A DNA stretch of 64,000 nt, from positions 1 through 64,000 of IMG/VR virus record IMGVR_UViG_3300020446_001812; one strand, written 5' to 3'. The notes below the pieces were generated by a model that was given only the letters and a program-made list of their open reading frames with translations, had not been told where the DNA came from and ran no database searches. Below are positions 37,542-64,000 of the stretch, piece after piece. This DNA is from a virus. Positions within the stretch are counted from its first letter, which is position 1. Each line of letters opens with the position of its first letter. A program made the position numbers and the translations under genes.

Positions 37542-37570
37542 TTGACTATGAGGGCATTTTAGTGTATACT
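37542..37570 (+). promoter_or_regulatory. Sigma-70-type promoter of the accessory island
   Basis: TTGACT (37542-37547), a 17-base spacer and TATACT (37565-37570) in the 61-base gap after the last virion gene. The predicted start near 37577 leaves a 19-base leader containing AAGGAG (37585-37590) before the ATG at 37596. It marks the change from late to host-type control and probably reads through the island. Confidence 0.82.
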
Positions 37571-37595
37571 TTTGGTATATGCAAAAGGAGCTTTT

Positions 37596-37943
37596 ATGGA
37601 CGAGAGATTAGAAAAAGCAATAAATTTTTCAAACTTTTTAGATACACAAAACAATCAAAAAAATATTTTTTACAAACAGTATCAAGAAAATTTAATACAT
37701 TATGCATTTGGACATAAATTTGTTGCAACTCCGCAACTTATAAATTTTCTATACACATTTGTAAAAGAACAAGAAAAAACTTGTATACTGATTGATGAAA
37801 ACAATACCCCTGTAGAAATACCTGATGTAAAAAGTTTTGCAAAAGAATTGTTAGGTGTTTACATCTTTGCCTCAAGAAAGTATGCAAAAGATTATAATGA
37901 TATAAAAACACACAGATCAGTTGAAGGATTAACTGACTTATGA
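37596..37943 (+). CDS. Conserved marine-phage protein, unknown function
   Basis: A 115-residue protein starting MDERLEKAINFSNFLDTQNNQK and ending HRSVEGLTDL, a pattern I recognise from T4-like marine phages without a known function. It looks mixed helical with a short strand (KTCILIDENNTPVEI). AAGGAG at 37585-37590 sets the ATG at 37596; an upstream in-frame TTG at 37572 would place the start next to the -10 box and is unlikely. Its stop overlaps the next start as ATGA. As the promoter-proximal gene it may be expressed most strongly. Confidence 0.7.
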   Translation: MDERLEKAINFSNFLDTQNNQKNIFYKQYQENLIHYAFGHKFVATPQLINFLYTFVKEQEKTCILIDENNTPVEIPDVKSFAKELLGVYIFASRKYAKDYNDIKTHRSVEGLTDL

Positions 37944-38788
37944 CACATGGTGTTTTACTTTTTGCATTTAACAACAGTAATATAGATTATGTAAAGCAAG
38001 CAATATATTGTGCAAAACGTGTTAAAAAGCATTTAGGCTTGCAAGTACAATTAGTTACAGATGCTATTGATTATATAGAACAAACATATCCTTTTTATCA
38101 AAAATATATCGATCACATTACATACCAAGAGACGCCAAAATCTGCAAGGAAAAAATTTTATGACGGCATTTACTCAAACAAAACTTTAGAATGGAAAAAT
38201 AGTGCAAGGGACACAGCATACCATTTAAGTATATTTGATAAAACTTTAGTGATTGATACAGATTTAATTATATGTAACAACAAACTCTTAGAATGCTTTA
38301 CAAGCAATCAACAATTTATGATTGCAAAAAAATATAATCTTGTTAACACAAATAAAGTAGAACCTAGTTTTGATAAAATAAGCGATAAAAGTATTCCTAT
38401 GTTTTGGGCTACAATTTTATATTTTGAAAAATCAAAACAATCAAAATTAATTTTTGATTTAGTTTGTCATATAAAAGAAAATTACAACTATTACAGATTA
38501 GTTTATGATATTGTTGAAAAAAAATTTAGAAATGATTTTGCTTTTAGCATAGCAATACATATTATCAATAATTTTCAAAATAATAAAAGCTGGCCCTTAG
38601 CAATTCCAACAGATATGTGGGTATCGACTGACAAAGATATATTGGTAGATATTCAAAATGATAAAATTAAATTACTAGCACATAAAGAGTATGATTATAT
38701 CGTAGTCAAATTACAAGATGCAACTACACATATTATGAATAAATTTAGTCTTAACAAATATATTGATGAGGAATTTAAAAATGAGTAA
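37940..38788 (+). CDS. GT-A-fold glycosyltransferase-like protein
   Basis: A 282-residue protein that reads like a nucleotide-sugar glycosyltransferase of the GT8-like GT-A type. It opens with a Rossmann-like strand (GVLLFAFNNSNIDYVKQA), has VQLVTDAID as a second strand, and carries D106-T-D108 in KTLVIDTDLII, the usual DxD metal and sugar-nucleotide site. Later, FWATILYFEKSK fits the acceptor-side strand. The next gene is a related but diverged copy. No membrane segment or signal is seen, so a cytoplasmic site is likely. Donor and acceptor are unknown. Confidence 0.6.
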   Translation: MTHGVLLFAFNNSNIDYVKQAIYCAKRVKKHLGLQVQLVTDAIDYIEQTYPFYQKYIDHITYQETPKSARKKFYDGIYSNKTLEWKNSARDTAYHLSIFDKTLVIDTDLIICNNKLLECFTSNQQFMIAKKYNLVNTNKVEPSFDKISDKSIPMFWATILYFEKSKQSKLIFDLVCHIKENYNYYRLVYDIVEKKFRNDFAFSIAIHIINNFQNNKSWPLAIPTDMWVSTDKDILVDIQNDKIKLLAHKEYDYIVVKLQDATTHIMNKFSLNKYIDEEFKNE

Positions 38789-39590
38789 CGGAATATGTAT
38801 TGTTGCTCAGAACAATAAGCAAACAGACTATGTGAGACAAACATATGGATTAGCACTAAGCATTTTAGCTAGTAACCCTAACACCAATATAAGCATTATT
38901 ACAAACGACATTGTTCAGCAAAAATACAAAAAAGTATTTGACCATATTATAGAAATACCATGGGATGACTTAGCAAAACAGCAATGGAAAATAGAGAATA
39001 GATGGAAAGTTTATCATTGTACTCCTTATAGAAACACTATGGTTTTTGATGCAGACATGTTAGTACTAGATAAAATCAATTGGGATTATCACGATCATAA
39101 TAATTTAGCATTTACAACAAACGTAAGCACGTATAGACAAGAAACAAGTAACAACAGGTATTATAGAAAAACGTTTGATGCAAATCTGTTACCTAACATT
39201 TATACTGCAATGTATTATTTTAAAAAACATCCAGAGGTAAAAGAATATTTTATACTTTTAGAACTTATTGTAAAAAATTGGCAGTATTTTTACAAAAAAT
39301 ACACTAACGTTAAAATGCAAAATTGGTGTAGCATGGATGTAAGTGCCGCCATTGCACTTAAAATATTAGGTATACAATCCTATTGTACTAATGAACAACT
39401 TACATTTACACATTTAAAACCTCACATGCAAAACTTTACACAAGTGCCTAGTAAAATATTTGACGCATGTAAAATTGATATAGATGATGGCATTTATATA
39501 AATGGATATAAACAAAAAGGTGTGTTACATTATGTAGAAGATGATTTTTTAACAGAAGATGTTTTATCTTGGTTAGAGGAGCAAGTCTAA
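38781..39590 (+). CDS. GT-A-fold glycosyltransferase-like protein, paralogue
   Basis: A 269-residue protein with the same architecture as its upstream neighbour: GICIVAQNNKQTDYVRQTYG at the N-terminus, ISIITND, then D90-A-D92 in NTMVFDADMLVL, and MYYFKKHPEV in place of the acceptor strand. The ATG at 38781 overlaps the previous stop (ATGAGTAA) and has GAGGA 8-10 bases upstream; a TTG at 38763 is less likely. The tandem pair may add two sugars in sequence or act as a heterodimer. Substrate unknown. Confidence 0.6.
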   Translation: MSNGICIVAQNNKQTDYVRQTYGLALSILASNPNTNISIITNDIVQQKYKKVFDHIIEIPWDDLAKQQWKIENRWKVYHCTPYRNTMVFDADMLVLDKINWDYHDHNNLAFTTNVSTYRQETSNNRYYRKTFDANLLPNIYTAMYYFKKHPEVKEYFILLELIVKNWQYFYKKYTNVKMQNWCSMDVSAAIALKILGIQSYCTNEQLTFTHLKPHMQNFTQVPSKIFDACKIDIDDGIYINGYKQKGVLHYVEDDFLTEDVLSWLEEQV

Positions 39591-40117
39591 TGTTTTATAT
39601 GCATTACGGAGAAGATGGAAATATTTTGTCAGTTGGTAATTCTATTGATAGTAATTTAAAATATATAGAAATAGACGAACAAATGTTTTTAGACTTCAAC
39701 GAAGGACGAAAACAAACTTTTGAATATAAGGTAATTGAAGATGTAAAACTAAACGGAAAAATGCATGTAGTGCCTGTAAACATAGACTTTATAGATCAGT
39801 TACAACATAAAAAAGGAGTGATTAAAGTAAGTAATAATGAAGATAATTGTATAAAAATTATGCAACATAAAGATAAATGGGAAATTATTAATTGCTTAAA
39901 TAATGAAACATCCTCTATTTTATCAGAAAATGATTACTATAGGGAATATTATATTACAAAAAATACAAACAAATACATCTTACTTGATAAGTTTGAAATA
40001 AATTTAAGAGATTTAGTATTTGAAAACATTTTTATAGAAGGGCACAGTGCGGAAAAGGAAGTTAGTATTATATGTTTTGAAAGTTATTTTAAACATATCC
40101 ATACCATATCAGTATAA
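39590..40117 (+). CDS. Unrecognised protein, 175 residues
   Basis: I do not recognise this protein. It begins MFYMHYGEDGNILSVGNS and looks beta-rich, with many Asn, Ile and Lys and no Cys-rich site, transmembrane segment or signal peptide. AGAGGA at 39574-39579 supports the ATG at 39590, which shares a base with the previous stop; the same one-base overlap joins it to the next gene. Its place between glycosyltransferase-like and SGNH-like genes suggests a share in the same pathway, or a role in fibre attachment, but nothing in the sequence decides. Confidence 0.5.
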   Translation: MFYMHYGEDGNILSVGNSIDSNLKYIEIDEQMFLDFNEGRKQTFEYKVIEDVKLNGKMHVVPVNIDFIDQLQHKKGVIKVSNNEDNCIKIMQHKDKWEIINCLNNETSSILSENDYYREYYITKNTNKYILLDKFEINLRDLVFENIFIEGHSAEKEVSIICFESYFKHIHTISV

Positions 40118-40818
40118 TGGATTTTACAAATTTTAAAAATTTAATTACATTTGGTTGTAGTCACACTTGGGGTGCGTGTATGCCTGATATATTTGACCCT
40201 AAGGATAAGCACGGTCAGCAAAGACACGACGGAAAAATATATCCAAGCAAATACGCTTGGGGCAATATCGTTGCTTCATTATTTGGTTTAACGCACAATA
40301 ACCAAGCGATGGCAGGAGCATCAAATAGATACATTTTATACAAAATTTTGAACCATGATTATGATAAAGATGTAGTATGTATACTTTGGTCGCATACACA
40401 CAGGCATACTGTTTTTAAAAGTGAAAAAAGATATGAAAATTGGGGGCCTTTTTCTGTAGACACTAGCAAAGCGGCAAAGATGTGGTATCAGCATTGTTAT
40501 CAAAGTTATGATAGTATTTTAGATACTGCACAGTGTATTAATCATGCAATGCTGTATTTGAATTCAAAGAATATTCCTAATTATCATATTTTGCAAACTA
40601 AACAAGGAAAAGATCTTTTTAAAGGATTTCCCAAAGAACCAATAAGATATATTTTAGATTCAAAAATACAAAATGTATTTTTTGATGAGTTTAGAAGGAT
40701 ACCACCTCTTGCACTTGATAATAAACATGCCGGTGAAAAAGCACATAGGAAATTTGGAAAAGCAGTTGCAAGATCTATCTTAAATAATAAACAAATTACA
40801 ATAGGAGAACTACTATGA
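40117..40818 (+). CDS. SGNH/GDSL hydrolase-like protein
   Basis: A 233-residue protein with SGNH-type motifs: LITFGCSHTWG near residues 9-19, where the Ser replaces the GDS nucleophile motif; an NNQAMAGASNRY block with Gly and Asn for the oxyanion hole; a VCILWSHTHRH strand; and a C-terminal DNKHAGEKAHRKFG that can supply the D-x-x-H pair. SGNH enzymes remove or transfer acyl groups on sugars, lipids or peptidoglycan. No signal peptide is seen, so it acts inside the cell or on virions. It sits between an unknown gene and a GT-A gene with 1- and 4-base overlaps. A second SGNH gene lies at 51306. Confidence 0.62.
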   Translation: MDFTNFKNLITFGCSHTWGACMPDIFDPKDKHGQQRHDGKIYPSKYAWGNIVASLFGLTHNNQAMAGASNRYILYKILNHDYDKDVVCILWSHTHRHTVFKSEKRYENWGPFSVDTSKAAKMWYQHCYQSYDSILDTAQCINHAMLYLNSKNIPNYHILQTKQGKDLFKGFPKEPIRYILDSKIQNVFFDEFRRIPPLALDNKHAGEKAHRKFGKAVARSILNNKQITIGELL

Positions 40819-41732
40819 AGGTTATAGATTATGATATAATATATCTATCATATGATGAACCCAATGCAGAAAAAAATTATGCTGACCTGTTAACGAAAGC
40901 ACCTTGGGCAAAACGTGTGCATGGAATCGAAGGATCAGATGCGGCACACAAGGCCTGTGCAGAATTATCTGAAACTGATAGGTTTATAACTGTTGACGGT
41001 GATAATATTATTAGAGCAGATTTCTTACAACAAGAATTAAATATTTCTAATGATGTTAAATTATCAGAAAGTGTAATTAGTTGGTGCGGAAAAAATTCTA
41101 TAAATGGATTAATGTATGGTAATGGTGGGTTAAAGTGTTGGCCTAAAGAATATGTATTAAATATGCGTACACATGAAAACGCAGATCCAAATAATGAAGC
41201 AGCTCAGGTTGATTTTTGTTGGGATTTGAAATACATTCAACAAAACAGTTGTTATTCAGATGTATATAACAATGCAACACCTCAACAGGCTTGGAGAGCT
41301 GGATTTAGAGAAGGTGTCAAGATGGCTCTTGATAGAGGAGTAAAACCTAGTGTTGAGGACTTTTTAAAAGGACATTGGAAAAACTTACATAGACTATGGA
41401 TATGGTTAATGGTAGGGTCTGATGTTGATAACGGATTATGGGCAATATATGGTGCCCGAGAAGGATTGGTTAAAACTATGTTAACGGATTGGGACTTTGT
41501 TAACGTTAGAGATTTTAAATATTTAAATAATTTATGGAAAGAAAAAGAAAAAGTAGATTCGCAAACTATGTTATTAGAAGCAATAGAAATATTAGGAGCA
41601 TCATTAATTGATAGTTTAGATATACCTATAGGACAAATGCCATTTGATGAACAGCAAAGTAAGTTTTTCAAGACTGTTTATCAAAATCCTAGTAGGAATC
41701 CAAAACAACAATTTGTAATAGACCCGGAATGA
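40815..41732 (+). CDS. Glycosyltransferase-like protein (marine phage type)
   Basis: A 305-residue protein of a family common in marine T4-like phages. It has DIIYLSYDEPNAEKNYADLL at the N-terminus, then APWAKRVHGIEGSDAAHKA, then D61-G-D63 in FITVDGDNII as the likely metal and sugar-nucleotide site, and a YGNGGLKCWPKE segment. A C-terminal extension carries AWRAGFREGVKMAL. The arrangement fits a GT-A glycosyltransferase of GT2 type. A shorter paralogue is encoded at 43056, with a radical SAM gene between them. Both ends overlap neighbours (ATGA). The target could be host surface glycan or phage protein. Confidence 0.62.
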   Translation: MKVIDYDIIYLSYDEPNAEKNYADLLTKAPWAKRVHGIEGSDAAHKACAELSETDRFITVDGDNIIRADFLQQELNISNDVKLSESVISWCGKNSINGLMYGNGGLKCWPKEYVLNMRTHENADPNNEAAQVDFCWDLKYIQQNSCYSDVYNNATPQQAWRAGFREGVKMALDRGVKPSVEDFLKGHWKNLHRLWIWLMVGSDVDNGLWAIYGAREGLVKTMLTDWDFVNVRDFKYLNNLWKEKEKVDSQTMLLEAIEILGASLIDSLDIPIGQMPFDEQQSKFFKTVYQNPSRNPKQQFVIDPE

Positions 41733-43063
41733 TCGATAATTTTCAACAGGTTAAAACAGAACTAGATAATGTAGGTTGCGGATTTTGCCTTGCTAAATGG
41801 ACGCAAGTTACAATTCATTTATCTTCCGGCATCACTCATAGTTGTCATCACGTAGGTGCTCATAAAATACCCCTTGATGAACTTAAACTAAATCCTAATG
41901 CATTACATAATACAAAAGAAAAGAAATTGCGTAGGAAAGAAATGCTTAACGGCGAACGTCCTAAAGAATGTGATTACTGTTGGAGAATTGAAGACAACAC
42001 TACAGAATATAGTGACAGAGTTCTAAAAAGTTCAAGGTCTTGGAGTCAAATAGATAAAGATAAAATATTACAAAATAATTGGGATGAAGATATATATCCT
42101 AGATATGTAGAAATAAGTTTTTCAAATGTTTGCAATTTTAAATGTGCATACTGTGGACCTCCTTTCAGTAGTAAATGGACAGAAGAAGTAAAATCATTAG
42201 GACCTTATAAATTAAAACAAAAACATTATAATGGAATTAAAAGCACAGAAGTTCCTTATACTAATAAAGAAGAGAATCCGTATATTGATGCATTTTGGAA
42301 ATGGTTTCCAGAATCAGTAAAACACATGAAAGTGTTTAGAATTACAGGAGGAGAGCCACTTTTATCTAAACATACATTACCTGTAATACAATATTTAATA
42401 GATAACCCACATCCAGATTTAGAATTTGCAATTAACACAAATGCATGTCCTCCGGATATTCTATGGAATATTTTTGTAGATAAAATTGTTGAATTAGAGA
42501 ATAATAAATCTGTTAAAAATTTTACTTTATATACAAGTGCTGAAAGTTACGGCAGTCAAGCAGAATATGTTAGAGATGGAATGGATTTTGATTTGTTTGA
42601 AAAAAATTTAACACATTTTATACAAAAAACAAAAAGGTCGAGAGTAACAATAATGAGTGCATTTAATATATTAAGTTTGCCTACATTGAAACCTTTTATA
42701 AGATGGTCAAATAAATTAAAAAGACTTTCGAGAGGCAGAGTGTTTTTAGATTTTGCATATGTAAGGCATCCAGAATTCTTAGATGTTAAAATTGCAGATA
42801 AAGATTTAATAGATCAGTATATTAAACCTGCTGTAGATTATATGATTGAAAAGGATGTATATACGGATTATGAAATATTTAAACTAGAAAGAATATATAA
42901 AGATTGTATTTCTAAATTAGAAAAAGAGTTTGATTTCAAATTAGAAAAATATCAATTTTACCAATTTGTAAATGAATACGACAAGAGACGTAATAAAAGT
43001 TTTTTGTTAACATTTCCAGAACTAAAAAACTTTTATAAAAAATGCGAGGCCTATTATGTATGA
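41729..43063 (+). CDS. Radical SAM protein with N-terminal twitch-like domain (1)
   Basis: A 444-residue radical SAM enzyme. C135, C139 and C142 (CNFKCAYC) should bind the [4Fe-4S] cluster that splits AdoMet; FRITGGEPLL is the AdoMet-contacting GGE motif. Before the core, an N-terminal Cys set (CGFC, SCHHVG, CDYCWRIED) matches the auxiliary twitch domain seen in several genes downstream. The C-terminus (FLLTFPELKNFY) resembles those of the proteins at 49032 and 54279. Enzymes of this group are known from phages and polysaccharide clusters, mostly without known substrates. It is flanked by two related glycosyltransferase-like genes, so sugar tailoring is a reasonable guess. Confidence 0.85.
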   Translation: MIDNFQQVKTELDNVGCGFCLAKWTQVTIHLSSGITHSCHHVGAHKIPLDELKLNPNALHNTKEKKLRRKEMLNGERPKECDYCWRIEDNTTEYSDRVLKSSRSWSQIDKDKILQNNWDEDIYPRYVEISFSNVCNFKCAYCGPPFSSKWTEEVKSLGPYKLKQKHYNGIKSTEVPYTNKEENPYIDAFWKWFPESVKHMKVFRITGGEPLLSKHTLPVIQYLIDNPHPDLEFAINTNACPPDILWNIFVDKIVELENNKSVKNFTLYTSAESYGSQAEYVRDGMDFDLFEKNLTHFIQKTKRSRVTIMSAFNILSLPTLKPFIRWSNKLKRLSRGRVFLDFAYVRHPEFLDVKIADKDLIDQYIKPAVDYMIEKDVYTDYEIFKLERIYKDCISKLEKEFDFKLEKYQFYQFVNEYDKRRNKSFLLTFPELKNFYKKCEAYYV

Positions 43064-43739
43064 TATAGCATTTATAAGTTATAATGAAAAGCAAGCTGAT
43101 AAAAATTGGGAAATATTATCTAGTAAATTCAAATATGCCAAAAGAACGCACGGAGTAAAAGGTATACATCAAGCACATATAGAAGCGGCTAAAAAAGCAT
43201 TTACTCCAATGGTTTGGTTTGTAGATGCAGATGCTGAAATAAAAGAAGATTTTGATTTCAGCTATATTCCGCCAAGAAAAGATAGAGATGCTGTGCATGT
43301 ATGGAGAAGTCAAAATCCTATAAATGATTTAGAATATGGATACGGAGGCGTAAAACTTTTTCCAAGAATAGCTACTATAAATGTAGACGTTAATAAACCA
43401 GACATGACAACAAGTATTAGTAAAAAGTTTATACCTATGCATACTATAAGTAATACAACGATGTTTAATGTAGATGAATTTAGTACATGGAGAAGTGCAT
43501 TTCGAGAATGTGCAAAATTAGCAAGTAAAACAATTGATAGACAAAACGAGGAGGAAACAAATGCAAGACTTAAAACTTGGACAACCGTGGGACACACTAG
43601 AAAGTTTGGTGAATATGCGATTCGAGGTGCTTACGATGGTATGGAGTTTGGCCTTTCTAGGGGGGCTGATCTTCGGTTAATAAACAATTACGAATGGTTA
43701 AAGGAGCAGTTTGATGCAAACACAAGAATTATTAGATAA
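43056..43739 (+). CDS. Glycosyltransferase-like protein, short paralogue
   Basis: A 227-residue relative of the protein at 40815: DIAFISYNEKQADKNWE, then AKRTHGVKGIHQAHIEA, D57-A-D59 in MVWFVDADAEI, and YGYGGVKLFPR correspond in order. It lacks part of the C-terminal extension, and the Arg-rich end (TWRSAFRECAKLASKTI) matches AWRAGFREG of the longer copy. Duplication with a radical SAM gene between the copies suggests that the three work on one substrate. The last 26 bases overlap the next gene. Confidence 0.6.
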   Translation: MYDIAFISYNEKQADKNWEILSSKFKYAKRTHGVKGIHQAHIEAAKKAFTPMVWFVDADAEIKEDFDFSYIPPRKDRDAVHVWRSQNPINDLEYGYGGVKLFPRIATINVDVNKPDMTTSISKKFIPMHTISNTTMFNVDEFSTWRSAFRECAKLASKTIDRQNEEETNARLKTWTTVGHTRKFGEYAIRGAYDGMEFGLSRGADLRLINNYEWLKEQFDANTRIIR

Positions 43740-44670
43740 ATTTGAAATACTTTATCCAAATGTTGCTGATTTGCGTAGGGCTTACACTGATAAAGATTTA
43801 AGTAGTATTTTTAGATTACTAGATGCAAACGATGATTTACGCAAAGCAGTAATGGAAGAAAACTTACATAGTATATTTAGAATCATAAAAAATTATGATG
43901 TAGAAGAATTACGAAAAGCAGTCACAGAAAAAAATTTACACAGTATTTTCAGACTTGTAGATGACGAAGATTTACGTAAGTTTTTACTAGAGGATAATAT
44001 ATACAAATTATGGCCTTTACTACGTAGATTTACAAATACACAATTTGTAGATGCATTTAAAAGTTTTTTTATTAATAATATTGAAATTGACAATGATTGT
44101 TTTAGCAGAGGACAATTATTAAGTAAACAATGGTTAATTAAGGAATTGTTAAAAATTAATAAAAATTTAGGAACAGTGTATCTTTGTGCAGGATGGTATG
44201 CTACACTTGCAACAATGTTATTTGAAAGTAATATAAAGTTAGATAAAATTAGATCTTTTGATATAGATGAAACTTGTGTGCCTATAGCAAAAATATTTAA
44301 CAAGCCTTGGTTAAAAGAAAACTGGAAATTCCAAGCATCAACTATAGATATAAATGATATAGATTATAGAGAACACACGTATCAAGTAACAAGAGCAGAT
44401 GGTACTTCCTGCTCTGTTACTGATCAATGCGATACTGTTATAAACACAAGTTGTGAACATATTGGAAATTTTTCTAAATGGTATAACAATATTCCTGCAA
44501 ATACAATACTTGTGCTTCAAAGCAATAATTTTAATGAAGTGGAGGAACATACAAATTGTGTCAATAATATAGAAGAATTTGACAACATGACACCTATGCA
44601 AGAAACTTACTATAAAGGTGCACTTGAACTAGACAAATATACGAGGTACATGAAAATTGGATATAAATAA
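43714..44670 (+). CDS. SAM-dependent methyltransferase-like protein with N-terminal repeats
   Basis: A 318-residue protein in two parts. Residues 20-103 carry four copies of a 21-24-residue helical repeat, L-R-(R/K)-x-x-x-x-x-(D/N)-L-x-S-I-F-R-L, starting at residues 20, 42, 66 and 87. Residues about 150-318 look like a class I methyltransferase: a GTVYLCAGWYATLATMLF strand and turn, and IRSFDIDETCVPIA for the acidic ribose-binding strand. The AdoMet loop is G-W-Y rather than the common GxGxG. The ATG at 43714 has AAGGAG (43701-43706) upstream. The repeats may form a small solenoid that binds a partner. Substrate unknown. Confidence 0.55.
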   Translation: MQTQELLDKFEILYPNVADLRRAYTDKDLSSIFRLLDANDDLRKAVMEENLHSIFRIIKNYDVEELRKAVTEKNLHSIFRLVDDEDLRKFLLEDNIYKLWPLLRRFTNTQFVDAFKSFFINNIEIDNDCFSRGQLLSKQWLIKELLKINKNLGTVYLCAGWYATLATMLFESNIKLDKIRSFDIDETCVPIAKIFNKPWLKENWKFQASTIDINDIDYREHTYQVTRADGTSCSVTDQCDTVINTSCEHIGNFSKWYNNIPANTILVLQSNNFNEVEEHTNCVNNIEEFDNMTPMQETYYKGALELDKYTRYMKIGYK

Positions 44671-44893
44671 TTTTAGTCTAAGAAAATTGCAGACAGAAAG
44701 TTCCCGTGCTTTAAGTGCTATGCAAGCTACTAATAATAATATTCATCAATTCAATAAACAAGCTCATCATAATAGCCAAAATTGGTACAAAGCAGTAATT
44801 GAATGGTATATAAAAGAATATGGCGACATACCAAGTAAAGTAGGTCCGGGTAAAGATGTAAAATTAGTCTTAGGAGAAAACGTTGATACATGA
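44657..44893 (+). CDS. Small unrecognised protein, 78 residues
   Basis: A short polar protein with no match I recognise. It starts at a TTG (44657-44659), with GAGG (44643-44646) ten bases upstream, and overlaps the methyltransferase-like gene by 14 bases and the next gene by 11. The N-terminal half looks helical (LRKLQTESSRALSAMQ), followed by an Asn/His/Gln-rich section and SKVGPGKDVKLVLGE. It lies one gene ahead of a SPASM-type radical SAM gene, so a modified-peptide substrate is one possibility; a small helper subunit is another. Confidence 0.45.
   Translation: MDINNFSLRKLQTESSRALSAMQATNNNIHQFNKQAHHNSQNWYKAVIEWYIKEYGDIPSKVGPGKDVKLVLGENVDT
44872..44876 (+). promoter_or_regulatory. Ribosome binding site deciding a TTG start
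   Basis: AGGAG six bases before the TTG at 44883. The nearby ATG at 44890 reads only two codons before a stop, so the TTG is the credible start of the following 315-residue gene. Confidence 0.7.
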
Positions 44894-49008: not shown

Positions 49009-49031
49009 CATTGGCTTTTTTGCTGATAAGT

Positions 49032-56164: not shown

Positions 56165-56166
56165 CG

Positions 56167-56195
56167 TTGACAAAAAAAGTGTTGTGTGTTATAAT
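56167..56195 (+). promoter_or_regulatory. Full-consensus sigma-70 promoter inside the island
   Basis: TTGACA (56167-56172), exactly 17 bases, TATAAT (56190-56195), in a 36-base gap. All twelve hexamer bases match consensus. The predicted start near 56202 falls at the ATG of the next gene (56201), so that message would be leaderless or nearly so. Confidence 0.85.
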
Positions 56196-56200
56196 TATAT

Positions 56201-57328: not shown

Positions 57329-58001
57329 CAAAATAAAACAAACTCATAGTGACCCTACACAGTTTGTAAATATTCTTTCTGAAGATAAGATAAATTTTTT
57401 AATTGAACATTATGAACAATCGGATAAAAAAATAGAAAAAAATACAGGACCGATTATGCTTACTGTAAACGAAGGTGATGGCATAATAGATGATATATTA
57501 AAATTACTTAGACAAATGTATGGAAATTTTAATGTGCGTTCTGCCCATTTTTTTGATGTGAAAGATCCGCATATCATACATGTAGATGATGGCAAGGAGT
57601 TACCAGATAGTTTTAAAGCATTTACAATTCCTTTACGAGTAATTGGCAATGATGCAAGTAAGGCTAAATTAATTATGTTTGACCAATATTACTATGGCGG
57701 TGCAGCCAAGTTTATGAAAAATGGTCCTGCAGTCAAAAAAACTTTTTATAATACGCATTTGTACATTTATGACGATGTGCAAGGGTTGAATGACAAAGGT
57801 ATTCCCGAAGAATATAAAGGCATGTTAAGTCATCTCAAAGAATCTTGGTATGATGGCTTGAGTATTAAAAGTTATTTTCCATGGACTATCGGATCTATAA
57901 TTTGTTTTGATAGTTTAAGATTACATTGTGCAAGTAATTTTAAGACAGAAAATATAGAAAGGAAACTAGGCCTAAGTATTTTTACCACTCAGCCTAATTA
58001 A
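57306..58001 (+). CDS. 2-oxoglutarate/Fe(II) oxygenase-like protein (3)
   Basis: A 231-residue protein started at the ATG at 57306, with AAAGGA about seven bases upstream; an earlier TTG is less likely. H92-V-D94 in HIIHVDDGKE and H207 in LRLHCASNF would bind iron; KLGLSIFTT is the closing strand with a basic residue for 2-oxoglutarate. IPLRVIG and SIICFDSL fit the jelly-roll. It overlaps the radical SAM gene by 23 bases and is followed two bases later by a methyltransferase-like gene. It is the third radical SAM/oxygenase pair in the island. Confidence 0.62.
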   Translation: MRQQQQINKIKQTHSDPTQFVNILSEDKINFLIEHYEQSDKKIEKNTGPIMLTVNEGDGIIDDILKLLRQMYGNFNVRSAHFFDVKDPHIIHVDDGKELPDSFKAFTIPLRVIGNDASKAKLIMFDQYYYGGAAKFMKNGPAVKKTFYNTHLYIYDDVQGLNDKGIPEEYKGMLSHLKESWYDGLSIKSYFPWTIGSIICFDSLRLHCASNFKTENIERKLGLSIFTTQPN

Positions 58002-58003
58002 TT

Positions 58004-58471
58004 ATGGAATTAGTAATTAGTGAATTACATTTGAAAAAGCCACCTTGGACTTTGAGAAATAAATTAATTGCAGAACATTTAGAACCAAATAAATCTGTAA
58101 TTGATATAGGAGGTGGAGCCGGAGATATTTTGAAATATTACAAGCCTAGTAAATATTGTAATATTGATGGGATGCCAGTTGATAATGTTGATATTATTTT
58201 AGATTTAGATTCAGATTATCATTTGGAATTAGAGGAAGGTTGGGATTATTCTATCAACAGTGGCATCTTAGAATGGGTAAAAAGGGTAGACTATTTCTTA
58301 GACAAACAAAAAAATTTAGCAAACAATTATATTTTTACATGGCATCACGATCCATTATGGGGAAGGATGAGTTTTAGTCGAATAGAAAGTATAATTAATG
58401 AAAATTATATTATAAATGATACCATACCTTGGGGCGGTAAGCAAAAAATATATAAATGTAAAGCAAAATGA
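58004..58471 (+). CDS. Small SAM-dependent methyltransferase-like protein
   Basis: A 155-residue protein with a class I methyltransferase core: SVIDIGGGAGDILKYY carries the Gly-rich AdoMet loop, YCNIDGMP the acidic second strand, and DYSINSGILEWV the motif IV region. It is shorter than most such enzymes (about 200-250), keeping the AdoMet half and only part of the substrate half. IFTWHHDPLWGRMSF may be a substrate strand. It joins an oxygenase-like gene and the next radical SAM gene (ATGA overlap). Substrate unknown. Confidence 0.68.
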   Translation: MELVISELHLKKPPWTLRNKLIAEHLEPNKSVIDIGGGAGDILKYYKPSKYCNIDGMPVDNVDIILDLDSDYHLELEEGWDYSINSGILEWVKRVDYFLDKQKNLANNYIFTWHHDPLWGRMSFSRIESIINENYIINDTIPWGGKQKIYKCKAK

Positions 58472-59490
58472 AGAAATGTGTCTATCCTAATAATATTTTA
58501 ATTGTAGGTAACGATGGTTACACTGATTCCTGTCCATTAGAAACTGCTAATTTACGTTTAGAAAATATTAATCAAGGAATACAAAAATCCTGGCAAAGTC
58601 CAAAGTATGCTGATTTTAGAAATAATTTAGAAGAGTATCTTAATAATAAAGATAAAATATGTTGGCAGTGCAACATGCTAGAAAAAAATGGTGGTATTAG
58701 TTTAAGAACAGAAACACCATTAATCACAGATTCTCCAGAACTGAAGGCTATCCAGTTTAAGTTAAGTAATCGTTGTCAACTTGTTTGTGCTCATTGCGGA
58801 CCTAATTTAAGTAGTAGTTGGGGTAAATTTGTTGGCCAAAAAAATTATATTAAGCAGTTTGAAATCAAGGATCATGTATTAGATGAACTTAAAACATTAG
58901 TCCCACAAATGAACTTTATAAGATTTACAGGTGGAGAACCATGGATGGATCCAATGCATTGGAAAATACTTAAATCCTTAAAAGGTATAGATAAAAAAGA
59001 CTGTGAATTACATTATATAACCAACGGACTATCAACTATAAGACCTGAACTATGGGAGGGTTGGAAGAAAATACAAATTATGTTAAGCGTTGATGGGTTT
59101 GGTGAAAGCTATGAATGGTTCAGAAGACAGGCATTGTGGAAAGATCTTTTACAAGCATATGAAAATTTATCTAAGCATCCAAATGTTAAATTAAAAATTA
59201 ATTTTTCACTTACACCATGGACAGTAGATAGTCTAGCATCTGCGAAAGAATATTTTCAAAATCCATTTTTAGTTGTTCCGATTATGTCACCTTGGCATTG
59301 TAGTTTAGGAAGTTTGACCGAAGACGAATATAATAATTTGGGCTTGACAAAGTACGTAGAATATAGTAAAATAATAGGAAGTAATCCAAAAGGTGCAAAA
59401 TATTTAAAGACCTGGGCGTTAAGTTGGGACAATAGATGGAATACACCAGGATTAGCAGAAAAGGTACATCCATGGTTGAACAAAATATAA
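58468..59490 (+). CDS. Radical SAM protein with degenerate N-terminal twitch-like domain (8)
   Basis: A 340-residue member of the twitch-type set and the shortest. The N-terminal Cys pattern is reduced: KCVYPN, DSCPLE with one Cys where relatives have CC, and ICWQCNMLEKNG. The AdoMet cluster is C103-C107-C110 (CQLVCAHC), with IRFTGGEPWM as GGE motif and IQIMLSVDGFGESYEWF as a later strand. The auxiliary cluster may therefore have altered ligands. ATGA overlap with the methyltransferase-like gene; 19-base overlap with the GNAT-like gene. Confidence 0.84.
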   Translation: MKKCVYPNNILIVGNDGYTDSCPLETANLRLENINQGIQKSWQSPKYADFRNNLEEYLNNKDKICWQCNMLEKNGGISLRTETPLITDSPELKAIQFKLSNRCQLVCAHCGPNLSSSWGKFVGQKNYIKQFEIKDHVLDELKTLVPQMNFIRFTGGEPWMDPMHWKILKSLKGIDKKDCELHYITNGLSTIRPELWEGWKKIQIMLSVDGFGESYEWFRRQALWKDLLQAYENLSKHPNVKLKINFSLTPWTVDSLASAKEYFQNPFLVVPIMSPWHCSLGSLTEDEYNNLGLTKYVEYSKIIGSNPKGAKYLKTWALSWDNRWNTPGLAEKVHPWLNKI

Positions 59491-60092
59491 CAACAGCTAT
59501 AGTAAACAAAAAAACACAATCTAAAGAAATTCTTGATTTTTGCGGATATGCAAGTACATTTACTAATGATCCTGCACATGTAAATATGTACCATAAAAAT
59601 TGGGCAGACAGACCAGAAACGTTGCCATACTTAATTTATATAAGTGAACGATTTAGAAATAATAACGGCGACTTTTATGTTTTAAAAATTAATAATGTAA
59701 TTAAGGCAATATCGGGCGTACAAATTAGTCCATTTGATACTAATGTAGCAATGGCAGGCATAAGGAGTTGGATAGATCCTAGTCTACGAGCTAAAATGTA
59801 TATAGGACACCACCTTTTACCTTTACATTTATCTTGGGCAAAAGAAAAGGATTTAAAAACTATTTTGTTATCTTTTAATAGTTATAACAAACGGTTGATG
59901 AATTATTTTAAAAGATCAGGTATGGGAGTGCCTAAACAGCGTAATGAAACAAGATTATTTAATAACGGTGTACATGAAGTTCCGTTTAGTGTAGATATAC
60001 AATATACAGAGCAATGGGTGTTGTACCACAAAATAGACGAGTCTTACGAACCTGATTGGAAAAAAATAATGTGGAATAAAAATAGTCGATAA
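59472..60092 (+). CDS. GNAT-type acyltransferase-like protein
   Basis: A 206-residue protein that looks like a GNAT acyltransferase: GDFYVLKINNVIKAISGVQ and VAMAGIRSWID are central strands, MYIGHHLLPLHLSWAKEKDL the cofactor-side helix, and ILLSFNSYNKRLMNYFKRSG the helix common near the end of the fold. The classical Q/R-x-x-G-x-G/A loop is not clear, so the call is moderate. The ATG at 59472 has AAAGG upstream; an ATG at 59436 would add 12 residues. A GNAT could acylate an amino sugar or a protein Lys. It lies between a radical SAM gene and the desaturases. Confidence 0.5.
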   Translation: MVEQNITTAIVNKKTQSKEILDFCGYASTFTNDPAHVNMYHKNWADRPETLPYLIYISERFRNNNGDFYVLKINNVIKAISGVQISPFDTNVAMAGIRSWIDPSLRAKMYIGHHLLPLHLSWAKEKDLKTILLSFNSYNKRLMNYFKRSGMGVPKQRNETRLFNNGVHEVPFSVDIQYTEQWVLYHKIDESYEPDWKKIMWNKNSR

Positions 60093-60100
60093 ATAGCTAT

Positions 60101-60859
60101 ATGCAAGATATTATAAAATCAAACACCAACACTTTATCTTATATACAATACATTGCATTGTTCATTGTTGTTGTAGGGTTTGTCTATGTGGATTTTACCT
60201 GGCAATTCATTGCATTATCGATATTAAGTTTTTATATATTTTCTATACTTGGTTTGAGTTTGACGTTGCATAGATATTATAGTCATAAGAATTTTGAATT
60301 CAAGAACAATATTTTGCGTAAATTATTTACATATATTGCTATATTAGCAGGTAGGGGTAGTCCGTTAGGATGGGTCTACATACATAGAATACATCATAGG
60401 CATGCTGATACAGAATCAGACCCGCATGGACCTAAGACTACTGGTTTAAGATTTTTTGGATTCAAACCTAAAGATACAGAAAATAAAATGAAGGTTTTTT
60501 TAGTAAAAGATTTACTTAATAAAGAACAATTATTTTATCATAATTATTATTTGTTGTTTATTTTAGGATTTATGGCTATTCTTGGTATAATAAATTTTGA
60601 TTTTTTATATTTTGGTTACGCTATTCCGTTACTTGGTATACAATTTAGTCAAAACTTTTTTAACTTTTTTGCACACAAATTAGGGTATAGAAATCATAAT
60701 ACTAAAGATGATAGTACTAATAATATTTTACTATGGCCTCTTATTTGGGGAGATGCATGGCACAATAATCATCACAACAATTTAGCTAAATTTACTACAA
60801 AAGAAAAATGGTGGGAATTAGATCCTGTTGTGAGTATAGCAGGAGTAATTAAAAAATGA
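60101..60859 (+). CDS. Membrane fatty acid desaturase (1)
   Basis: A 252-residue integral-membrane, diiron desaturase of the acyl-CoA/acyl-lipid delta-9 type. The three His boxes are HRYYSH (57-62), HRIHHRH (95-101) and HNNHH (221-225), with W-G-D-A-W before the last. Hydrophobic segments flank them: about 15-55 and 145-195 should be paired membrane helices. It introduces a cis double bond into a fatty chain using oxygen and reduced ferredoxin or similar. The stop overlaps a second desaturase start (ATGA). A 9-base gap separates it from the GNAT-like gene. Confidence 0.88.
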   Translation: MQDIIKSNTNTLSYIQYIALFIVVVGFVYVDFTWQFIALSILSFYIFSILGLSLTLHRYYSHKNFEFKNNILRKLFTYIAILAGRGSPLGWVYIHRIHHRHADTESDPHGPKTTGLRFFGFKPKDTENKMKVFLVKDLLNKEQLFYHNYYLLFILGFMAILGIINFDFLYFGYAIPLLGIQFSQNFFNFFAHKLGYRNHNTKDDSTNNILLWPLIWGDAWHNNHHNNLAKFTTKEKWWELDPVVSIAGVIKK

Positions 60860-61626
60860 ATTATTTAAAAAGTAATACAATAGTTGCACAAATAGTTCTT
60901 GCTATATCATTAGCTGGAACAATTTTTGGTTATTACAGTTACGGCATTACATTAGGAACCGTATTACTGCCTATATTAGGATACTTTTTATATGTAGGTT
61001 TAGGAATAAGTGTTACCTTTCACAGACAACTTACGCATAGATCATACAAAACACATCCTTGGATTATAAAATTAGGAACAATTCTTGGAACATTAAGCAA
61101 CACAGGAAGTAGCATTGTGTGGGTAGCAATACATATGAATCATCATAGACACGCAGATACTGAAAAAGACCCTCATAGTCCAAGACATCAAGGATTAAAA
61201 ACTTTTGCATTAGAGTATGATTTAGACACAAGCCGAGTGAAATGGAAAATGAAACATCTAATAGGAGATCCATTTCATATGTTTCTACACAAATATTATT
61301 TTGCAGTAATTGCTCTATGGAGTTTAATTCTATATATTATTGGCGGATTTTATCTAATGGTATTTCTACATTGGTTTCCAATGATAATAAGCGGAGCAAT
61401 GAGTAATATTGTAAACTATATAGGGCATAAACCTAATTGGTGGGGTGGCTATCGTAGATATAATACACGAGATGATAGTATAAACAACTGGCTATGGGCG
61501 ATTCCAAGCTGGGGAGAAACATTACACAACAATCATCATAAAAGACCTTATTCATACAGCCATGGTGAAAAGTGGTGGGAAATTGATATTGGGGCATATA
61601 TTGTTAAGCTAATAAAGGCTAGATAA
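60856..61626 (+). CDS. Membrane fatty acid desaturase (2)
   Basis: A 256-residue paralogue with His boxes HRQLTH (56-61), NHHRH (95-99) and HNNHH (224-228), and D-P-H-S-P after the second box as in the first copy. Membrane helices are expected at about 10-50 and 140-195. The two copies are diverged, so they may set bonds at different positions or act on different lipids. Together they could alter host membrane fluidity or supply an unsaturated lipid to the island's pathway. The next gene starts four bases after the stop. Confidence 0.88.
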   Translation: MNYLKSNTIVAQIVLAISLAGTIFGYYSYGITLGTVLLPILGYFLYVGLGISVTFHRQLTHRSYKTHPWIIKLGTILGTLSNTGSSIVWVAIHMNHHRHADTEKDPHSPRHQGLKTFALEYDLDTSRVKWKMKHLIGDPFHMFLHKYYFAVIALWSLILYIIGGFYLMVFLHWFPMIISGAMSNIVNYIGHKPNWWGGYRRYNTRDDSINNWLWAIPSWGETLHNNHHKRPYSYSHGEKWWEIDIGAYIVKLIKAR

Positions 61627-61629
61627 TAT

Positions 61630-63252
61630 ATGACGCAAGTTATTATTTTTACTGGGACATCCCGAACTGATCCCAAAAATAAAATTTATTCTCAACAAGA
61701 CATGACAGCAAGTATCTTGATGCGACCATTAGGTGCGTATCAGATTGCTTCTATATTAAGAGCAAATGGATATACAGTACAGGTTATAGATCGCTTCCAT
61801 TGGTTAATTAGAGAAAAAGGTCGTGAATTTTACCGGGAAGTTATCCGGCCTCATATAGGAGCTGATACATTATGGATAGGATGGAGCAATACCTTTTGGG
61901 AAGGTGAACCAAGAGCTGGGCCTGAAGATTTAAAAAACATAGGATATTTGGCAGAGGCAGCACGTTCTGTAGGCATGCGAGAAGAAGGGTTGCAGGCAAT
62001 GCAAAACTATAGGCAGGAGATAAATCCAAATATTAAATTTGTAGTTGGTGGCGCAAAAACTTGGAGATGGAGTCAACAGGATTTTAAGTTTTTTGATTAT
62101 TATGTAGAAGGCTATGCTGATGTAATGGCTTTAGAATTGACCAATTGGTTAGCTGGCAAAGGAGATAAGCCTGCTTGTAGACCTAACGATGACGGTTCTG
62201 AAATACTAGATTACGATAAACGTGGTGATAAATTTGACTTTGTAAATCATGTTCATAGATGGCATCCTACAGATTATTTAAATCAAGGAACTTCTTTACC
62301 TATAGAAATTGCAAGAGGTTGTATATTTAGATGTGCTTATTGTAGCTTTCCGTTAAACAATAAAAAGAAATTAGATTTTATTAGAGAACCAGAGCAACTG
62401 AAAGAAGAATTTGTAAGAAACTACGAAGAGTATGGAGTGACAAAATATTACTATGGAGATGATACTCATAATGATAGTGTAGAAAAACTAGAATTTTTGT
62501 ATGATAAAGTATACTCTCAGCTACCTTTCAAAATAGAATTCGCAACATATCTAAGATTAGATTTGCTTGCCGCACATCCACAAACTATACCATTGCTGTT
62601 AGAAAGTGGATTAGTAGGAACATTTTTTGGTATAGAAAGTTTCAACAAAGATGCTAATAAAACCGTAGGCAAAGGAGCTACAGAGGAAAAAATTTATGAA
62701 AATTTATACAAATGTAAAGATGTTTGGAAAGATAAGGTCCACATTCACGCTGGTCTAATAACAGGTTTGCCTAATGATAGCGAAGATACTATACTAGATT
62801 GGGGAATGAGAGCTACTAGTAAAGAATCACCTATTGACTATGCTATGATTACTGAATTACATTTATTTCCTAAATGGGGTAAAGACACTCATTGGCTTAA
62901 TAAAATGGAATTAAATCCTGCTTTTTATGGTTATGAGTTTGAAGAAGATGGCATTCAATATACAAATAATGTAGGATTAACAAAAAGCAGAGCGGCTCAA
63001 CTAGCAGTTCATTTATTAAAAAATATGGATGAGCAAAAAAAGGGCAAAGATTGGTCTATGAATAAGAGTCAAATGCAAGGATGGTATAGTTTTGCACATG
63101 CCGCAAATTGTGGTATGACCACCCATGAATACTTAAATAAGGGTCGATTAGATATTTTAAACCGTAGAGAAAGTATTTTAAATAATTATTATGCAAAATT
63201 AAAAAACGGTGCTAAAATAGAACAAAACAGAAAGGATAGTTATGATGGCTGA
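61630..63252 (+). CDS. B12-binding-domain radical SAM protein (9)
   Basis: A 540-residue enzyme with a different architecture. Residues about 1-170 look like a B12-binding Rossmann domain (IFTGTSRTD, YQIASILRANGYTVQVID, KFVVGGAKTW), although the D-x-H-x-x-G motif of His-ligated cobalamin is absent. The core has C231-C235-C238 (CIFRCAYC) in PIEIARGCIFRCAYCSFP, then YYYGDDTHN, and LVGTFFGIESFNKDANKTVG. Members of this class catalyse methylations, ring changes or tailoring of unactivated carbons. The C-terminal 120 residues are helical and specific to it. Cobalamin itself would have to come from the host. Confidence 0.85.
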   Translation: MTQVIIFTGTSRTDPKNKIYSQQDMTASILMRPLGAYQIASILRANGYTVQVIDRFHWLIREKGREFYREVIRPHIGADTLWIGWSNTFWEGEPRAGPEDLKNIGYLAEAARSVGMREEGLQAMQNYRQEINPNIKFVVGGAKTWRWSQQDFKFFDYYVEGYADVMALELTNWLAGKGDKPACRPNDDGSEILDYDKRGDKFDFVNHVHRWHPTDYLNQGTSLPIEIARGCIFRCAYCSFPLNNKKKLDFIREPEQLKEEFVRNYEEYGVTKYYYGDDTHNDSVEKLEFLYDKVYSQLPFKIEFATYLRLDLLAAHPQTIPLLLESGLVGTFFGIESFNKDANKTVGKGATEEKIYENLYKCKDVWKDKVHIHAGLITGLPNDSEDTILDWGMRATSKESPIDYAMITELHLFPKWGKDTHWLNKMELNPAFYGYEFEEDGIQYTNNVGLTKSRAAQLAVHLLKNMDEQKKGKDWSMNKSQMQGWYSFAHAANCGMTTHEYLNKGRLDILNRRESILNNYYAKLKNGAKIEQNRKDSYDG

Positions 63253-63610
63253 ACATTGGGGTTACCATGCTTTATTTGATTGTGCTGAATGCAATTTGCC
63301 TAGTGTGACTAGTAAAGATAATGTGCTTAATTTTCTAAAAGAGCTTGTTTTAGAAATAGATATGGTGCCTTTTGGTGATCCATTCATTGAACACTTTGCT
63401 ACACACGATCCGCAAAAAGCAGGTATTAGTTTTTTTCAAATGATTGAAACAAGTAACATAAGCGGACATCTTTGTGATATAAATGGTGATGCATATATAG
63501 ATGTTTTTTCATGCAAAGAATATGATGTAGAGAAAGCACAGGCAGTAGTACAAAAATATTTTTCACCTAAGAAAATTAGATTAAATTATATCACTAGATC
63601 TGCAAGTTAA
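63242..63610 (+). CDS. speD: S-adenosylmethionine decarboxylase homologue (SpeD-like)
   Basis: A 122-residue protein with the SpeD layout: WGYHALFDCAECN at the N-terminus, then a core IETSNISGH (68-76) that aligns to the family's I-S-E-S-H-I-T-I-H, then AYIDVFSCKEYDVEKA and a C-terminal strand. The pyruvoyl-forming Ser (S71), His (H76) and Cys (C91) are kept, but the residue before the Ser is Thr instead of Glu and the one after is Asn instead of His. It may form spermidine precursors or act on another amino acid; SpeD relatives with changed substrates are known. Two adjacent ATGs (63242, 63245) are possible, with AAGGA at 63232-63236. Confidence 0.72.
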   Translation: MMAEHWGYHALFDCAECNLPSVTSKDNVLNFLKELVLEIDMVPFGDPFIEHFATHDPQKAGISFFQMIETSNISGHLCDINGDAYIDVFSCKEYDVEKAQAVVQKYFSPKKIRLNYITRSAS

Positions 63611-63619
63611 GGATATGTG

Positions 63620-64000
63620 ATGATTCTTTTGTTCACAGATGTTAGTCATACTCCTGGTATAGGCAAATATGCTGGAACATATAAAGTTGCGACAGAATTA
63701 CGCAAAAATAAGTTTGATACCCAAGTTATTGATTGTTTTAAATACTTGGGTATTAAAAGGTTGAAAAAGATTCTTGATAAGTTCTTAACAAATAAAATTA
63801 TTTTGATTGGTATTAGTAATACCTTAATGTATAATCAAAAATTTATGTGGGGCATCACTGACAAAGAATTCGAGGAATTTGTAACTTATGCAAAAAAAAT
63901 AAATCCTAACATAAAATTTATGGTAGGAGGAGCAGGCGTTACACAATATTCTAATTGGCCATATATAGATTATTCTATAATAGGTAAAGGCGACTCAGCC
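63620..64000 (+). CDS. B12-binding-type domain, probable radical SAM protein (10), cut by the window end
   Basis: The first 127 residues of a gene running off the right edge. ATG at 63620 with AAGGA (63609-63613) six bases upstream. The translation opens MILLFTDVSHTPGIGKYAG, continues through FDTQVIDCFKYLG, KIILIGISNTLM and INPNIKFMVGGAGVTQ, and ends ...IIGKGDSA. The order of strands, including the F-M-V-G-G-A element, matches the N-terminal domain of the protein at 61630, so a radical SAM core is expected beyond the edge. The cluster Cys residues are not yet in view. Confidence 0.6.
   Translation, partial: MILLFTDVSHTPGIGKYAGTYKVATELRKNKFDTQVIDCFKYLGIKRLKKILDKFLTNKIILIGISNTLMYNQKFMWGITDKEFEEFVTYAKKINPNIKFMVGGAGVTQYSNWPYIDYSIIGKGDSA

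What the first reader, a model, noticed from the sequence alone, without database searches (positions are those of the whole stretch)
37542..64000. A phage island with nine radical SAM genes and a probable tenth
Nine genes show an intact CX3CX2C motif and a GGE-type motif, or a recognisable replacement for it. A tenth looks like another N-terminus of this class. They are interleaved with glycosyltransferase-, SGNH-, 2-oxoglutarate oxygenase-, methyltransferase-, SIS-, CMP-sugar synthetase-, GNAT- and desaturase-like genes, nearly all overlapping by 1-23 bases, behind sigma-70-type promoters. Single radical SAM genes are known in phages; a co-oriented array of this size next to fibre genes is, to my knowledge, unusual. 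I infer one pathway making or remodelling a decorated glycan, glycolipid or peptide, on the host envelope or on the fibres.
Basis: partly seen in the sequence, partly recalled or inferred. Interest (0 to 1): 0.88.

Follow-up and report, generated by a model that had tools for sequence, protein, structure and literature searches.

The report
Phage array of radical SAM enzymes
Beside its tail-fibre genes this T4-like phage carries a block of eleven radical SAM enzyme genes mixed with sugar-transfer genes; related uncultivated phages carry similar blocks, and a core of three of the enzymes also sits in the chromosomes of some predatory-type bacteria (Bdellovibrionota), which points to a shared but still unidentified chemistry, most likely on surface sugars.

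Summary
Nine radical SAM (rSAM) genes lie in the window, the "probable tenth" (63617-65065) is real, and an eleventh follows at 70664-72061; all eleven fall within about 30 kb of a 106-kb T4-like phage record. They are not freak cargo: many uncultivated phage records hold 13-19 rSAM genes, and in a sample anchored on a baseplate gene every record reaching the same place carried them. Four to five of the window's rSAMs are single-copy orthologues across phages; three (45823, 49011, 56201) form a core that recurs, clustered with homologues of the island's glycosyltransferases and methyltransferase, in chromosomes of 22/369 Bdellovibrionota genomes but 0/399 Pseudomonadota. Active-site motifs are intact in 400 of 405 homologues, and the core genes are under purifying selection. 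Best reading: a fixed core plus exchangeable accessories that build or remodel an outward-facing glycoconjugate (GT8-like and GT-A-like transferases, PseF-like synthetase, O-antigen-type neighbours in bacteria). The substrate, and whether host envelope or virion fibre is modified, stay unproven; peptide or protein modification is the main rival. A T4-like viral genome with 12 rSAM genes was reported in 2017; the conserved core, its fixed place and the Bdellovibrionota link I did not find reported.

The parts
36620..37534 (+). fibre-like virion protein (inferred) just upstream of the island; a 26% homologue travels with the island in a Bdellovibrionales contig (L253)
37572..37943 (+). conserved 123-aa protein, first gene of island
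   Evidence: found in 38 related loci
37940..38788 (+). GT8-like (glycogenin-like) glycosyltransferase with DxD, 1 of pair
   Evidence: profile hit to glycogenin E 5e-7; 50 related loci
38763..39590 (+). GT8-like glycosyltransferase, 2 of pair
   Evidence: same profile; 43 related loci
40117..40818 (+). SGNH-like by motif only; no family hit
40815..41732 (+). core GT-A-like protein (invariant D61/D63)
   Evidence: 70 related loci; AF2 model pLDDT 90, best PDB matches are GT-A enzymes, SunS E 1e-4
41729..43063 (+). rSAM 1, N-terminal twitch/SPASM (NF033640), conserved
43056..43739 (+). core GT2-like partner, paralogue of 40815
43711..44670 (+). class I methyltransferase-like (by motif) with N-terminal helical repeats; homologues in Bdellovibrionota clusters
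44657..44893 (+). highly conserved 78-aa protein, often directly before rSAM 45823; phage-like contigs only
44883..45830 (+). nitroreductase-family protein
   Evidence: PF00881
45823..46890 (+). rSAM 2 (GNLGDP variant), core trio member
46887..47390 (+). SIS/GmhA-like by motif only
   Evidence: sequence; no family or PDB hit
47369..48091 (+). CMP-sugar synthetase, PseF-like
   Evidence: PF02348 E 7e-11; TIGR03584 E 7e-25 below cut-off
49011..50453 (+). rSAM 3, NF033640, core trio member
   Evidence: 419 bits vs cut-off 170
50437..51306 (+). 2OG-oxygenase-like by HxD..H motif only
   Evidence: sequence; no family hit
51306..51974 (+). SGNH-like by motif only
   Evidence: weak homologue in L212
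51967..53148 (+). rSAM 4, NF033640, accessory
53141..54292 (+). rSAM 5, NF033640, accessory
54279..55436 (+). rSAM 6, NF033640, conserved orthologue group
55433..56164 (+). Asp/Asn-hydroxylase-like 2OG enzyme by motif only
   Evidence: no family hit
56167..56195 (+). perfect sigma-70 consensus TTGACA-17-TATAAT in a 36-base gap
56201..57328 (+). rSAM 7, core trio member, single copy, most conserved (mean column identity 77%)
57264..58001 (+). 2OG-oxygenase-like by motif only
   Evidence: no hits
58004..58471 (+). methyltransferase-like (weak)
   Evidence: PF13489 E 0.003, below cut-off
58468..59490 (+). rSAM 8, N_Twi-like (160 bits, cut-off 170), accessory
59436..60092 (+).
60101..60859 (+). 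fatty-acid desaturase
   Evidence: PF00487 E 4e-10
60856..61626 (+). fatty-acid desaturase
   Evidence: PF00487 E 3e-18
61630..63252 (+). rSAM 9, B12-binding type, PhpK/HpnJ-like, accessory
63242..63610 (+). S-adenosylmethionine decarboxylase
   Evidence: PF02675 E 7e-17
63617..64000 (+). N-terminus of rSAM 10 (B12-binding; gene runs to 65065 in the record)
   Evidence: PF04055 62 bits, PF02310 34 bits

Best explanation
The island is the variable 'surface-chemistry' block of a T4-like phage lineage, lying just after the tail-fibre genes. A fixed core (GT8-like pair 37940/38763, GT-A-like pair 40815/43056, methyltransferase-like 43711, and the rSAMs 45823, 49011 and 56201, usually with 41729 and 54279) is proposed to build or alter a glycoconjugate by radical chemistry on sugars or sugar carriers (SHOWN: gene content, orthology, intact motifs. 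INFERRED: substrate and reactions). Exchangeable genes (PseF-like CMP-sugar synthetase with a SIS-like partner, oxygenase-like genes, methyltransferase, desaturases, B12-type rSAMs) vary the decoration from phage to phage. The product most likely goes to the outside: the infected cell's envelope (blocking rival phages or altering receptors), or, second, the phage's own fibres. The trio is not phage-specific: orthologues sit clustered in chromosomes of some Bdellovibrionota, often with the same transferase families and in several cases next to O-antigen-type genes.
For: rSAM families and partners. Single-copy orthologue groups in a tree of 190 rSAM cores from 18 records: 49011 in 14 records (support 0.999), 56201 in 14 (1.0), 45823 in 12 (0.995), 54279 in 11 (0.997). 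56201 never more than once per record, found in 23 of 40 records searched whole. 400/405 homologues keep CX3CX2C. Purifying selection: pN 0.08-0.26 against pS 0.49-0.79 for nine gene pairs. Fixed position: of 14 records found through the baseplate wedge gene, the 5 that extend 28 kb or more past it carry rSAMs (7-11 where 36 kb or more), the 9 shorter ones none. Isolates Atu_ph07 and Phosso have 4 rSAMs in the same place after the giant structural gene. Bdellovibrionota 22/369 against Pseudomonadota 0/399 for 56201; 49011+56201 together in 15/15 loci read, with 45823 at 40% identity or more in 12; no baseplate gene in those genomes, with a working positive control. Glycan evidence: GT8-like profile to glycogenin, GT-A-like model, PseF-like synthetase, O-antigen-type neighbours in L285, L288, L291 and GT2 genes in L284, L286, L289, L292, two GT8 genes among the rSAM genes in Vibrio phage K566.
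Against: No substrate or product is known. The nearest solved rSAM structures are peptide maturases (CteB, SkfB, SuiB, anSME) as well as viperin, MoaA and BlsE, so fold does not favour sugars. The GT-A assignment of 40815 is weak by TM-score (about 0.34). Several glycan labels (SIS, SGNH, 2OG) rest on motifs only. Two of fifteen bacterial clusters border large prepilin-like proteins (by eye; no Pfam hit) and one lies near a type IV leader peptidase, which fits protein modification as well. Atu_ph07's cluster has few sequence matches to the window's island.
Confidence: 0.52

Rival explanations
1. Peptide/RiPP-like or protein modification: the twitch/SPASM rSAMs act on a small protein (for example the 78-aa protein 44657 next to rSAM 45823) or on a surface protein, and the transferases then glycosylate it.
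For: Nearest solved relatives are sactipeptide maturases SkfB and CteB; the GT-A-like partner's best structural match is the peptide glycosyltransferase SunS; the 78-aa protein is highly conserved and lies just before rSAM 45823 in several phages; prepilin-like neighbours in L289 and L292.
Against: The 78-aa protein is conserved along its whole length, lacks Cys and a leader/core split, and is absent from the bacterial clusters; no precursor family hit; sugar-activation genes and O-antigen neighbours fit a glycan better.
Confidence: 0.22
2. Decoration of the phage's own fibres: the island modifies the adjacent fibre-like proteins (such as 36620) so that virions bind or evade.
For: Island follows the fibre genes in phages; in a Bdellovibrionales contig a 36620 homologue, 37572, both GT8-like genes and 40815 occur together in phage order.
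Against: Most bacterial clusters have no fibre homologue; position next to fibres is also where pelagimyophages keep genes thought to alter the host envelope (PMC7029224).
Confidence: 0.17
3. DNA hypermodification or a nucleotide-based (viperin-like) function.
For: rSAM, transferases, 2OG-like genes and a weak QueC-like gene occur in some DNA-modifying phages (general knowledge; QueC-like hit E 0.005); viperin is among structural matches.
Against: Trio orthologues lie in bacterial chromosomes beside surface-sugar genes; lipid and CMP-sugar genes in the island; no base-modification family found.
Confidence: 0.04
4. Unrelated cargo genes gathered by chance, without joint function.
For: Accessory rSAMs have no or few close counterparts in relatives.
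Against: Single-copy orthologues, fixed place, intact motifs, purifying selection, independent clustering in another phylum.
Confidence: 0.05

Closest known systems
T4-like environmental viral genome TARA_ERS488813_N000010 (Nishimura et al. 2017, PMC5332604)
   Same: T4-like, 183 kb, 12 radical SAM genes
   Different: Reported as Fe-S-related gene content with an A-type carrier; the passage read describes no clustering, core or cellular counterpart. The window's record has no A-type carrier hit, though it may be a fragment
Host-recognition cluster of pelagimyophages (PMC7029224)
   Same: Variable region at tail-fibre genes with glycosyltransferases and rSAM cassettes
   Different: Those phages are described as infecting SAR11; nearest cultured relatives of the window's baseplate gene are jumbo phages of Salicola, Agrobacterium, Sinorhizobium and Pseudomonas
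Jumbo phages Atu_ph07 and Phosso
   Same: Same order: baseplate wedge, giant structural gene, fibre genes, rSAM cluster of 4
   Different: Only 4 rSAMs; no 56201 orthologue and few sequence matches to the island
NCBIfam NF033640 twitch domain-containing radical SAM protein
   Same: Five window rSAMs pass its cut-off
   Different: Others are not members; the model name implies no function
Phage O-antigen/LPS modification and capsule-synthesis clusters (PMC7824862)
   Same: Transferases and sugar activation on a phage, proposed to bar rival phages
   Different: The review's text contains neither 'radical' nor 'rSAM'; here rSAM enzymes are the main component

Membership tests
Radical SAM superfamily (PF04055) | CX3CX2C cluster motif in an rSAM domain | tested here: met
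   11 of 11 genes
NF033640 N_Twi_rSAM | score over curated cut-off (170 bits) | tested here: met
   met for 41729, 49011, 51967, 53141, 54279; not met for 58468 (160), 45823, 56201; 70664 not scanned against NCBIfam
B12-binding rSAM methyltransferases (PhpK, HpnJ and similar) | B12-binding domain plus rSAM; equivalog cut-offs | tested here: inconclusive
   domain pair present in 63617, B12 domain weak in 61630; no equivalog cut-off reached
GT8 glycosyltransferases (37940, 38763) | DxD motif and homology to GT8 enzymes | tested here: inconclusive
   profile hit to glycogenin E 5e-7 over residues 6-120 and invariant D106/D108; no Pfam hit
GT-A fold (40815, 43056) | GT-A fold with DxD | tested here: inconclusive
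   invariant D61/D63; Foldseek E 1e-4 to SunS but TM about 0.34
Known rSAM peptide maturases (RiPP systems) | cut-off of a maturase model and a linked precursor peptide | tested here: not met
   all RiPP maturase models far below cut-off; no precursor identified
Phage host-surface glycan modification island | changes host or virion glycans during infection | not testable with these tools
   needs glycan mass spectrometry
Pelagimyophage host-recognition cluster | same phage lineage and host (SAR11) | tested here: inconclusive
   closest isolates by baseplate gene are other jumbo phages; host unknown

The most novel reading that the evidence does not exclude
A previously undescribed three-rSAM pathway (45823, 49011, 56201 with dedicated transferases) is shared by a widespread T4-like phage lineage and by members of the predatory-bacteria phylum Bdellovibrionota, and makes a new kind of surface modification that both use in meeting or masking themselves on Gram-negative cells.
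Probability: 0.3. Interest if true: 0.85.

Novelty: new variant of a known kind. Interest (0 to 1): 0.64.

Why it matters
rSAM enzymes perform chemistry few other enzymes can, and phages with a dozen or more are a rich unexplored source. The work turns a list of genes into a defined core of three enzymes plus transferases, conserved in phages and in some Bdellovibrionota chromosomes, and names cultured phages (Atu_ph07, Phosso, Vibrio phages) in which arrays of the same superfamily can be tested. If the product is a surface glycan it would show how large phages repaint host or virion surfaces; if it is a peptide it would be a phage-encoded RiPP-like system.

Tried and rejected
(1) DNA similarity to isolated phages: none by megablast. 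(2) Idea that the array arose by recent tandem duplication: rejected for the core, since copies group with orthologues in other phages and not with each other; the two B12-type genes do group together. (3) Idea that Bdellovibrionota hits are phage contamination: rejected, as 0/369 genomes have the baseplate gene while two MAGs with misbinned phage contigs (Gammaproteobacteria MED685, Rickettsiales MED657) do. (4) Recent phage-host transfer: not seen; phage and bacterial copies form mostly separate clades (support 0.98 for 45823, weak for 56201; 49011 phage copies form two clades), direction unresolved. (5) Fe-S carrier as part of the system: present in 9 of 46 records, not in the window's record. 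(6) 78-aa protein as conserved partner in bacteria: absent there. (7) Diversity-generating retroelement near the Mtd-like gene: no convincing reverse transcriptase motif in a simple motif search. (8) Alignment of seven rSAMs as query for the genome scan failed for lack of conserved stretches. (9) A control search of the baseplate gene in Pseudomonadota failed on the server. (10) Literature: no paper found on the core or on the Bdellovibrionota link in the open library.
Full report
CHECKING THE OBSERVATION. The window is bases 1-64,000 of a 106,431-base virus record. Pfam and NCBIfam confirm nine radical SAM (rSAM) genes in the window, at 41729, 45823, 49011, 51967, 53141, 54279, 56201, 58468 and 61630. 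An eleventh gene, 70664-72061, lies beyond the window. Every one keeps CX3CX2C; 45823 (GNLGDP) and 61630 (YGDD) replace GGE. The genes lie in a run of 35 plus-strand genes of which 27 of 34 neighbours overlap. Promoter-like sites are not in excess overall, but a perfect sigma-70 consensus sits in the single 36-base gap before 56201. SbcC/D, baseplate and tail-fibre families show a T4-like phage.

COMPOSITION. Five rSAMs pass the cut-off of NCBIfam NF033640 (rSAM with N-terminal twitch/SPASM domain), 58468 falls just short, and 61630 and 63617 are B12-type. Partners supported by profiles: a PseF-like CMP-sugar synthetase, two desaturases, a nitroreductase, S-adenosylmethionine decarboxylase, and a GT8-like pair 37940/38763 whose profile finds glycogenin. 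40815 gave a confident model (pLDDT 90) whose best matches are GT-A transferases, SunS first, though with low TM-scores. SIS, SGNH, GNAT and 2OG-oxygenase labels rest on motifs only.

RELATIVES IN PHAGES. Scans of IMG/VR with two of the rSAMs gave 89 loci. Of 45 records searched whole, many carry 13-19 rSAM genes. That sample is biased because it was fetched with rSAM queries. A second sample anchored on the baseplate wedge gene removes the bias: all five records that extend at least 28 kb past that gene carry rSAMs (1, 7, 9, 10 and 11), and the nine shorter ones carry none, as expected if the array lies about 26 kb downstream. Isolated phages: Atu_ph07 and Sinorhizobium phage Phosso have four rSAM genes in the same place, right after the giant structural gene and fibre genes; Vibrio phage K566 has six, five of them within about 17 kb, with GT8 genes among them and an annotated PagP nearby; Salicola phage SCTP-2 and PA5oct have none.

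ORTHOLOGY. A tree of 190 rSAM cores from 18 records gives single-copy groups: 49011 (14 records), 56201 (14), 45823 (12), 54279 (11), and a looser 41729 group. 56201 occurs exactly once in each of 23 of 40 records searched whole; several of those copies are cut by contig ends. The remaining window rSAMs are accessory. Homologues keep the cluster motif in 400 of 405 cases; the five without are short or lie at locus edges. Nonsynonymous differences are far below synonymous ones, which are saturated in several pairs.

A CELLULAR COUNTERPART. A scan of 84,980 species genomes with the twitch-rSAM alignment returned mostly Bdellovibrionota; a single degenerate motif was used, so this is not a census. 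The 56201 orthologue is found in 22 of 369 Bdellovibrionota genomes and in 0 of 399 Pseudomonadota (chance about 1e-7, own arithmetic). In fifteen loci read, 49011 and 56201 orthologues always occur together, in twelve with 45823 at 40% identity or more, in varied order and orientation, and often with homologues of 40815, 43056 and 43711. Several are chromosomal contigs of 0.2 to 1.6 Mb, and those genomes lack the phage baseplate gene although the same search finds it in two MAGs holding misbinned phage contigs. Neighbours in three loci are O-antigen-type genes (GDP-mannose dehydratase-like, dTDP-sugar isomerase, DegT aminotransferase, bacterial sugar transferase, polysaccharide epimerase, acyltransferase-SGNH), GT2 genes occur in four others, and two border large prepilin-like proteins recognised only by eye. 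One Bdellovibrionales contig carries a homologue of the fibre-like 36620 followed by 37572, both GT8-like genes and 40815 in phage order. Phage and bacterial copies form mostly separate clades; the direction of transfer is open. None of this shows that the phage infects Bdellovibrionota.

HOW IT MOST LIKELY WORKS. Shown: a fixed core of rSAMs and transferases, intact and selected, with exchangeable accessories, at a fixed place after the fibre genes. Inferred: the core makes or modifies a glycoconjugate by radical chemistry, the accessories vary it, and the product faces outward, more likely on the infected host's envelope than on the virion. The main rival is modification of a peptide or protein: the closest solved rSAMs include peptide maturases, SunS glycosylates a peptide, and a conserved 78-aa protein precedes rSAM 45823 in several phages, but it is absent from the bacterial clusters.

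WHAT IS KNOWN. Nishimura et al. 2017 (PMC5332604) reported a T4-like viral genome with 12 rSAM genes as part of Fe-S metabolism; the pelagimyophage study (PMC7029224) mentions rSAM cassettes in the host-recognition cluster; an East Australian Current study noted rSAM and glycosyltransferase enrichment in Tasman Sea phages (PMC7150976). Bdellovibrio displays phage-fibre-like adhesins that bind prey glycans (PMC10769870), a suggestive but untested parallel. I found no description of the conserved trio, its fixed position or its Bdellovibrionota counterpart in the open papers searched; subscription papers and preprints were not available.

VERDICT. Observation confirmed; interpretation partly supported; a new variant of a known kind (phage host-recognition or surface-modification region) with an unexplained, testable core.

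Noticed in passing
window 15211-30093: A 4,960-aa giant gene directly after the baseplate wedge gene; corresponds by position to the giant 'virion structural protein' of Atu_ph07, Phosso and PA5oct.
   Followed up: partly
L001 10805-12460 (record 74205-75860, minus): Gene with a Major tropism determinant N-terminal domain just beyond the array; no reverse transcriptase was found nearby in a simple motif search, so no diversity-generating retroelement is shown.
   Followed up: partly
window 43711-44670: N-terminal part holds degenerate repeats of about 30 aa (LRKAVTEKNLHSIFRL) before a methyltransferase-like domain.
   Followed up: no
L253 14281-18692: Bdellovibrionales contig with housekeeping genes (PheT-like, TrmD-like by eye) on one side and phage-order island genes including a fibre-protein homologue on the other.
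   Followed up: partly
L200/L248 (MED685) and the MED657 genome of L240: MAGs labelled Gammaproteobacteria and Rickettsiales contain contigs of this phage group, apparently misbinned.
   Followed up: yes
window 63242-63610: S-adenosylmethionine decarboxylase gene lying between two B12-type rSAM genes.
   Followed up: no
L001 6350-7279 (record 69750-70679): Nitronate monooxygenase/IMP dehydrogenase-like gene directly before the eleventh rSAM.
   Followed up: no
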